A stretch of DNA of 64,000 bases from an uncultured Erysipelotrichaceae bacterium. Its GTDB lineage: Bacteria > Bacillota_I > Bacilli_A > RF39 > UBA660. Positions within the stretch are counted from its first letter, which is position 1, and each line of letters starts with the position of its first letter. The notes beneath the pieces were generated by a model, which saw nothing but the letters and a program-made list of their open reading frames with translations, had not been told where the DNA came from and searched no databases. Positions 58,848 through 60,554 of this stretch are shown piece by piece. The position numbers and the translations under genes are program-made. Location: assembly GCA_902789225.1 (NCBI GenBank), contig CADANC010000002.1, positions 124,001 to 188,000 on the forward strand. The letters run 5' to 3'.

Positions 58848-59969
58848 ATGAAATTTAAAATAAAAAGAGAATTATTATTAGAAGCACTTAATAAAGTAAG
58901 TAAAGCTATTTCTACTAAGAATCTTATACCTGTTTTAGCTGGTATTAAATTTGATTTAAAGAAAACTAAATTAACTTTAACTGCTAGTGATAATGATATT
59001 ACTATTCAAACTAGTATTAGTTCTAGTGATGATTTTATTATTGAAAAAGAAGGATCTATTATTATTCAAGGTAAATATATATTAGATATAGTTAGAAAAT
59101 TACCTGATGAGTTTATTGATATTGAAGTAATTGATGATTTGAAAATATTAATTTCCACAGAAAATAGTGAATATAATTTAAATGGTATAAGTGAAAAAGA
59201 ATATCCTAATATTAGTTTAGAAGAATCAAAGAATAAGGTAATAGTTGATGCTTCTACTTTAATTGATATAGTTAATCAAACTGCTTTTGCTACTTCTAAT
59301 GAAGAAAACAAACCAATACTTACAGGTATTAACTTTAATATAGTAGGGGATATATTAGAATGTAATTCTACTGACTCTTATAGATTAGCTAGAAAAGTAA
59401 TAAAATTAGATGAAGAATCTAGTGAAACATATAATATTGTTATTCCTAGTAGAAATATAATTGAGTTTTCTAAAATAATTTCAAATAGTGAAGATAAAGT
59501 TGAGATTAATATATTTAGTAATAAAGTATTATTTAAATATAATAACTTATTATTTCAATCAAGATTAATTAATGGAACTTTCCCTAATACATCAAATTTA
59601 TTACCAAAAGAAGAGATGTTAATTATTTCAACTTCATTAAATGCCTTCTATGATGTTATAGATAGAGTTAGTATTCTTACTAGTGATAAAGAAAAGAATA
59701 TTGTTACATTAGAGACAAAAGATGATTATTTAATTCTAAGAAGTTCTTCTTCTGAAATAGGTAAAGTAGAAGAAAAGATGCCTATATCAAAGAATAATAA
59801 AGAAAATATAAAAATATCATTTAGTGCTAAATATATGATGGAAGCTTTAAAAAGTTTTTCAACAGAATCTGTTGATATTCATTTTATTGGTGAAATTAAA
59901 CCTATTTTAATTAAATCTAATGAAGATGAAACTTTAACTCAATTAGTTTTACCAATTAGAACTTATTAA
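58848..59969 (+). CDS. dnaN: DNA polymerase III beta subunit (sliding clamp)
   Basis: A 373-residue beta clamp with three repeated domains; MKFKIKRELLLEALNKVSKAISTKNLIPVLAGIKFDL is the conserved N-terminus, and the last domain ends with KPILIKSNEDETLTQLVLPIRTY, the usual peptide-binding C-terminus. It tethers polymerase to DNA. AGAAGGAATA precedes the start. A terminator follows, and then the ComK gene. Confidence 0.97.
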   Translation: MKFKIKRELLLEALNKVSKAISTKNLIPVLAGIKFDLKKTKLTLTASDNDITIQTSISSSDDFIIEKEGSIIIQGKYILDIVRKLPDEFIDIEVIDDLKILISTENSEYNLNGISEKEYPNISLEESKNKVIVDASTLIDIVNQTAFATSNEENKPILTGINFNIVGDILECNSTDSYRLARKVIKLDEESSETYNIVIPSRNIIEFSKIISNSEDKVEINIFSNKVLFKYNNLLFQSRLINGTFPNTSNLLPKEEMLIISTSLNAFYDVIDRVSILTSDKEKNIVTLETKDDYLILRSSSSEIGKVEEKMPISKNNKENIKISFSAKYMMEALKSFSTESVDIHFIGEIKPILIKSNEDETLTQLVLPIRTY

Positions 59970-59996: not shown

Positions 59997-60007
59997 ATTT
60001 TGATTAG

Positions 60008-60032
60008 TCGACTAAAATCGACCAAAGTCGAC
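60008..60032. repeat. Three TCGAC units spaced 10 bp, upstream of comK
   Basis: TCGAC at 60008-60012, 60018-60022 and 60028-60032, within the unit WAGTCGACC. One turn apart, they lie on the same face of the DNA. The middle unit occupies the -35 position relative to a good -10 TATGAT (60041-60046, 17-base spacing), so a bound regulator would control comK. Confidence 0.6.
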
Positions 60033-60058
60033 CATGTAGGTATGATACTCTTTTTTTG

Positions 60059-60079
60059 AAAACGCATTAATGCTGTTTT
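60059..60079. promoter_or_regulatory. Inverted repeat in the comK leader
   Basis: AAAACGCAT pairs with ATGC-T-GTTTT around TA, with a one-base bulge. It carries AAAA and TTTT ends like ComK-type AT-boxes, although the spacing (13 bases) differs from the 5 of Bacillus AT-boxes. It could also fold as an RNA hairpin before the Shine-Dalgarno. Confidence 0.35.
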
Positions 60080-60107
60080 TAATTCATATTTTTAAGGGGG
60101 TATTTAT

Positions 60108-60554
60108 TTGAAATATGAAATTTCTAATGGAACTTTAGCAATAGTTCCTAATGAAGATGATAACAGTCTAATTTATGAAGATAATGAAAGGTTTATAGTA
60201 GAAGAGTCTCCTTTTAAAATAATGGAAGATTCTTGTAAGTATTTTGGATCTACTTATAAAGGAAGAAAAGATAGTGCTAAAGAAATATTAGGTGCTGAAT
60301 ATAAGATTCCTGTTGTTATTGAAGATTCTACTAATTTAATTGTTTTTCCTACTACTTCTCCTAAAGCAGAAGATTGTGCTTGGATTTGTTTAAATAGAGT
60401 GAAGAATATTAATAAAGTAGATTCATTTAATACTAAGATTACTTTTGATAATGATAAGGAATTAATAGTTCCTTGTTCATATAGGAGTATAGAAAATCAG
60501 TTATCTAGAGCTTCAAGATTAGATGTTATTTTAAGAAAAAGAAAAAAACTATAA
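60108..60554 (+). CDS. ComK-family competence regulator homologue
   Basis: A 148-residue ComK homologue. Its N-terminus YEISNGTLAIVPNEDDNS, then DSCKYFGSTYKGRKDSAKEIL (about 41-61) and LIVFPTTSPKAEDCAWICLNRV (about 77-98), align well with Bacillus ComK (DRSCRFFGSSYAGRK, FLFPTLSSTRPQCGWI). It stops about 40 residues earlier, after RASRLDVILRKRKKL, so the C-terminal part that includes the FMLYPK site bound by MecA is missing. TTG 60108 follows AAGGGGG. It lies between dnaN and recF, where Bacillus has a small S4 protein (YaaA). Good terminator after it. Confidence 0.8.
   Translation: MKYEISNGTLAIVPNEDDNSLIYEDNERFIVEESPFKIMEDSCKYFGSTYKGRKDSAKEILGAEYKIPVVIEDSTNLIVFPTTSPKAEDCAWICLNRVKNINKVDSFNTKITFDNDKELIVPCSYRSIENQLSRASRLDVILRKRKKL

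What the first reader, a model, noticed from the sequence alone, without database searches (positions are those of the whole stretch)
60008..60046. Three TCGAC units exactly 10 bp apart overlap the -35 region of the comK promoter
Spacing of one helical turn places all three on one face, as for cooperative binding of a regulator. The middle unit sits at the -35 position of a good TATGAT -10. The motif resembles neither the Spo0A box (TTCGACA) nor ComK AT-boxes, so the regulator may be unknown. The repeat is visible; the function is inferred.
Basis: partly seen in the sequence, partly recalled or inferred. Interest (0 to 1): 0.65.

Follow-up and report, generated by a model that had tools for sequence, protein, structure and literature searches.

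The report
Spo0A-box array at a comK promoter
The three evenly spaced repeats before the DNA-uptake master gene comK are binding sites for Spo0A, the classic master regulator of spore formation, kept here in a gut bacterium that has lost spore genes and has trimmed Spo0A down to its DNA-binding half.

Summary
In detail: TCGAC at 60008, 60018 and 60028, exactly 10 bp apart, the only perfect triple in the 1.6-Mb genome. The claim that it is not a Spo0A box and that the regulator is unknown is wrong. Across about 54 comK promoters of the same family, triples of TTCGACA (the Spo0A box) are strongly enriched at 10-bp spacing and far less at any other spacing. They sit at a fixed distance from an extended -10 (TGnTATAAT). 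All three base pairs that Spo0A contacts (C3, G4, C6 of TTCGACA) are intact in every unit of the window. Tandem boxes of the same kind precede spo0A itself, gerQ, histidine kinases and dnaA in relatives. The window's genome encodes a Spo0A ortholog at the conserved tpiA-spo0A locus. In all four genomes of this genus it has lost the receiver domain, and SpoIVA and the sporulation sigma factor are missing too. It is under purifying selection and folds like 1LQ1. Seven of nine lineages without spore genes keep both Spo0A and the array; two lost both. Best reading: a Spo0A operator, probably repressing or gating comK, and here phosphorylation-independent. Binding, and the sign of control, are untested.

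The parts
60007..60013 (+). 0A box 1 (GTCGACT), core TCGAC 60008-60012
   Evidence: predicted about -50 to -44 from the family-aligned start site
60017..60023 (+). 0A box 2 (ATCGACC), core TCGAC 60018-60022; overlaps the -35 region
60027..60033 (+). 0A box 3 (GTCGACC), core TCGAC 60028-60032; lies in the -35/-10 spacer; the best conserved box in the family
60043..60051 (+). extended -10 by family alignment (TG-A-TACTCT; TG-T-TAGTCT in G001; TGnTATAAT in the family)
60058..60080 (+). predicted hairpin at the start of the comK leader (GAAAAC...GTTTTT)
   Evidence: compensatory changes in relatives read by eye
60108..60554 (+). comK (148 aa, TTG start)
58848..59969 (+). dnaN, upstream neighbour

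Best explanation
The array is three tandem Spo0A (0A) boxes, head to tail and one helical turn apart, at the comK promoter. The protein that binds it is the genome's Spo0A ortholog (contig C2, about 99.5 kb from comK, outside the window). In this genus that protein has lost its receiver domain and consists of a short stub plus the Spo0A_C DNA-binding domain. Neighbouring monomers would bind the direct repeats cooperatively on one DNA face. Boxes 2 and 3 cover the -35 region and the spacer upstream of an extended -10, so bound Spo0A most likely blocks RNA polymerase and represses or gates comK, as box R1 does in B. subtilis. Boxes 1-2 could still contribute activation at another protein level. 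Without a receiver, binding should not depend on phosphorylation and would be set by the amount of Spo0A. Shown by computation: array, conservation, spacing, ortholog, lost receiver, missing spore genes, purifying selection. Inferred: actual binding, repression as the sign, regulation by abundance. The confidence below is for the identification as a Spo0A operator; repression as the sign is about 0.6.
For: In 54 comK upstream regions of the family, triples of TTCGACA score 15.06/21 at 10-bp spacing against 11.14 in shuffles (z 30.5); no other spacing from 7 to 16 exceeds z 6.2. The logo is TTCGACA-N3 x3 followed at a fixed distance by TGnTATAAT. Twenty-six further comK relatives, one of which (L180) appears to be G001 again, mostly show the same. 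TTCGACA pairs in relatives precede spo0A, gerQ, HisKA kinases, agrB/hpf and dnaA. Spo0A contacts G2, C4, G5 of TGTCGAA (= C6, G4, C3 of TTCGACA), and the isolated domain binds without phosphorylation (PMC3485338); all three are intact in each window unit. The 1LQ1 dimer forms on direct DNA repeats (PMC3358323). The G000 Spo0A hits PF08769 at E 1e-24 over the cut-off, 1LQ1 at E 1.8e-16 and by fold (TMt 0.87). tpiA-spo0A synteny holds in all four genomes of the genus. dN/dS is 0.16 and 0.19. Seven lineages without spore genes keep Spo0A and array, two lost both. Spo0A~P binds PcomK in B. subtilis and R1 overlaps the -35 and represses (PMC3297582).
Against: No binding or expression data. Window units differ from TTCGACA at the two outer positions, and the recognition helix has diverged (SRVERAIRHAI to KNIEKCIRYSI), so specificity could have shifted. 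TIGR02875 is below its cut-off (73.5 of 200 bits), as expected for one domain. Some relatives with full Spo0A have weak arrays. The start site is not mapped, so repression is inferred from position only; boxes 1-2 at about -50 and -40 could also suit activation. Relatives are not independent, so z values overstate.
Confidence: 0.8

Rival explanations
1. Same Spo0A operator, but Spo0A activates comK: boxes 1-2 at about -50 and -40 recruit RNA polymerase to a promoter that lacks a -35 element, and box 3 is auxiliary.
For: The family promoter has an extended -10 and no TTGACA at 17 bp; box 2 ends near -34. B. subtilis uses activating 0A sites upstream of comK.
Against: Box 3, the best conserved, sits at about -30 to -24 where polymerase must lie. 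In Spo0A regulons sites overlapping the promoter tend to repress (PMC4168254).
Confidence: 0.3
2. Another regulator (for example an OmpR-type response regulator or an Xre-type protein) binds the array in this genus, and the relict Spo0A acts elsewhere.
For: Outer box bases changed in the genus (position 7 C/T in 9 of 9 units against 12 of 108) and the recognition helix diverged.
Against: The family arrays are canonical 0A boxes; the core contacted pairs are unchanged; Spo0A persists under purifying selection; array and Spo0A are lost together in two lineages.
Confidence: 0.1
3. Relict: the array is a fading remnant of ancestral Spo0A control with no present function.
For: Spore genes are gone from the genus.
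Against: Units 2-3 are identical between G000 and G001 although silent sites differ (dS about 0.4); three units at exact spacing persist in G002; spo0A itself is constrained.
Confidence: 0.08
4. Chance repeat or a DNA-bending element with no specific protein.
For: A-rich linkers.
Against: Chance expectation is negligible, and family conservation is by sequence and spacing.
Confidence: 0.02

Closest known systems
Spo0A~P control of PcomK in Bacillus subtilis (Mirouze et al. 2012, PMC3297582)
   Same: Same regulator family, same target gene, box overlapping the -35 (R1).
   Different: There five scattered degenerate boxes (A1-3, R1-2) act with Rok and require phosphorylation; here three contiguous 10-bp-phased boxes and, in this genus, a Spo0A without receiver and no spore genes.
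Tandem 0A boxes bound by Spo0A C-domain (PDB 1LQ1; abrB, spo0A, sigH targets in PMC3485338)
   Same: TTCGACA core, direct repeats, asymmetric dimer; isolated domain binds.
   Different: Three boxes here; outer positions changed in this genus; target is comK.
Receiver-less Spo0A homologs of gut phages (PMC10294663)
   Same: Truncated Spo0A with only the DNA-binding domain.
   Different: Here chromosomal, at the vertically conserved tpiA-spo0A locus, in a lineage lacking spore genes.

Membership tests
Spo0A (0A) box | 7-bp TTCGACA core with C3, G4, C6 contacted | tested here: met
   C3, G4 and C6 are present in 3/3 window units (outer positions differ); family consensus is TTCGACA.
Spo0A (0A) box | tandem direct repeats with 10-bp period | tested here: met
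   Only 10-bp spacing strongly enriched.
Spo0A (0A) box | bound by Spo0A | not testable with these tools
   Needs gel shift or footprint.
Spo0A protein | Spo0A_C effector domain and fold | tested here: met
   PF08769 86.8 bits over cut-off 25; 1LQ1 TMt 0.87.
Spo0A protein | N-terminal phospho-receiver domain | tested here: not met
   155 aa, only Spo0A_C found; receiver absent in G000-G003. So it is a Spo0A ortholog by synteny and domain, not a full response regulator.
Spo0A protein | orthologous gene position | tested here: met
   tpiA-spo0A in 4/4 genomes of the genus and most of the family.
B. subtilis-type Spo0A control of comK | box overlapping the -35 of comK that represses | tested here: inconclusive
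   Overlap met in sequence; effect on expression not testable; start site unmapped.
ComK | ComK domain | tested here: met
   PF06338 149.9 bits.
OmpR-type direct-repeat operator (PhoP, WalR/VicR) | 11-bp repeat period with the family's own hexamer | tested here: not met
   Period is 10 bp; 11 bp is not enriched; the 11-bp rule is from own knowledge.

The most novel reading that the evidence does not exclude
The comK array would be what keeps the gene alive, with box and recognition helix drifting together. The same retention of Spo0A plus comK array would have occurred in several lineages without spore genes.
Probability: 0.5. Interest if true: 0.72.

Novelty: new variant of a known kind. Interest (0 to 1): 0.6.

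Why it matters
Non-spore-formers that retain Spo0A are a noted puzzle: PMC6136694 leaves open recent loss of sporulation or an alternate role for Spo0A. Here comparative evidence names a candidate alternate role, control of comK, and a natural receiver-less Spo0A with a defined operator in which this can be tested directly. It also shows that the Spo0A-comK link known from B. subtilis is present, in a much more regular form, in a family of uncultured gut Bacilli.

Tried and rejected
A second array in the genome (C31) lies in a relaxase gene and is chance. Two canonical TTCGACA pairs on contigs C13 and C33 lie among accessory genes and were not pursued. Rfam found nothing in the window. A phage origin of the truncated Spo0A was considered because gut phages carry such genes, and rejected on synteny. 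SpoIIIAE proved useless as a spore marker because it is absent from all 30 genomes tested. SpoIIID is patchy, so the case for lost sporulation rests on SpoIVA and the SigF-like sigma factor. G031 and G040 lack SpoIVA but have that sigma factor, so they were not counted as spore-gene-free. A weak Spo0A_C hit in G046 is not at the tpiA locus and was not counted as Spo0A. The idea that box position 7 and the recognition helix co-evolved is suggestive only: it rests on three promoters, two closely related, and position 7 is not a contacted base.

Full report
What is there. The dnaN-comK gap holds TTAGTCGACTAAAATCGACCAAAGTCGACCATG, with TCGAC at 60008, 60018 and 60028. The pattern search, the shuffles and the search of the whole genome make chance untenable. 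The downstream gene is comK, between dnaN and recF.

What it is. The same search was made upstream of comK in relatives. Fifty-six of 59 genomes of the family have comK. A scoring of triples of TTCGACA at spacings 7 to 16 bp in 54 upstream regions singles out 10 bp (z 30.5; next best 6.2). The aligned promoters read TTCGACA-N3-TTCGACA-N3-TTCGACA, about 8 bp of variable sequence, then TGnTATAAT. TTCGACA is the Spo0A box (TGTCGAA on the other strand; PMC3485338). That these are working 0A boxes in the family is supported by tandem copies before spo0A itself, gerQ, histidine kinases, agrB/hpf and dnaA.

The window's boxes are GTCGACT, ATCGACC and GTCGACC. The outer letters differ from TTCGACA, but the three base pairs that Spo0A contacts are all present. 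Position 7 is C or T in 9 of 9 units of the genus and in 12 of 108 of the family (three promoters only, so not independent).

The protein. Spo0A_C was found in 54 of 59 family genomes including one below the cut-off, usually in a frame of about 260 aa. In the window's genus (G000-G003) the frame is 161-167 aa, the protein 155-156 aa, and the receiver is gone. The gene still follows tpiA as in the rest of the family. It is under purifying selection (dN/dS 0.16 for G000-G001, 0.19 for G002-G003). It matches 1LQ1 by sequence and by predicted fold.

Sporulation. A full SpoIVA is missing in all four genomes of the genus, and their best match to the SigF model is only at the level of a housekeeping sigma factor (E about 1e-36 to 1e-25, against 1e-72 or better in most genomes with SpoIVA). 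Counting lineages that lack both markers: the window's genus, G008, G039, G058, G110, G115 and G123 keep a Spo0A at the tpiA locus and a comK array of at least two boxes, some with altered cores (G008 TCTAC; G110 TCGAG). G041 and G046 have neither. Fisher p is 0.028, if the lineages are independent, which was not tested. G003 has no comK in its assembly. ComEC is present in G000, G001 and G003, so DNA uptake is plausible.

How it works. In B. subtilis Spo0A~P binds PcomK directly; upstream sites relieve Rok repression, while R1, which overlaps the -35, and R2 repress (PMC3297582). Here the three boxes would begin at about -50, -40 and -30 from a start site predicted from the family -10. The array therefore covers the -35 region and the spacer, and box 3 is the best conserved. 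Repression or gating is the simplest reading (about 60%), activation the main rival (30%). The isolated Spo0A domain binds its targets without phosphorylation (PMC3485338), so the receiver-less protein should act through its abundance. These last steps are inference.

Known or new. The regulator family, the box and the target are known. The regular three-box architecture across an uncultured gut family, its retention after loss of spore genes and the chromosomal receiver-less Spo0A are, as far as nine literature searches show, not described. Receiver-less Spo0A is known from gut phages (PMC10294663).

Limits. Relatives are metagenome assemblies, the sets are not phylogenetically independent, the start site is unmapped and nothing was tested at the bench. 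Organism names come only from record titles of relatives (rumen and gut 'Bacilli', 'Erysipelotrichaceae'); the window's own taxon is not named.

Noticed in passing
window 60058-60080; L180-L205:2938-2991: The comK leader begins with a hairpin about 8-11 nt after the -10. The stem sequence changes on both sides in relatives (GAAAAC/GTTTTC, GAAAGC/GCTTTC, GGAAAC/GTTTCC, GAGAACTT/AAGTTCTT), suggesting an RNA stem near the 5' end. Mean folding z over 80 leaders is only -1.26 against -0.71 for an upstream control.
   Followed up: partly
30 family genomes: SpoIIIAE is not found in any of 30 genomes of this family or its near relatives, although many carry SpoIVA, a SigF-like sigma factor and Spo0A: a reduced or divergent sporulation programme.
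   Followed up: no
L167:1500-1517 (G013): A tandem 0A-box pair lies upstream of dnaA in a relative, suggesting Spo0A control of replication initiation there.
   Followed up: no
G000:C13:15174-15188 and G000:C33:3543-3557: Canonical TTCGACA tandem pairs among accessory genes of the window's own genome, possibly acquired or contaminant contigs.
   Followed up: partly
L192 and L229 (G110): In another lineage without spore genes the boxes read TTCGAGA/ATCGAGA/TTCGGCA, and Spo0A has a changed recognition helix and an eroded receiver.
   Followed up: partly
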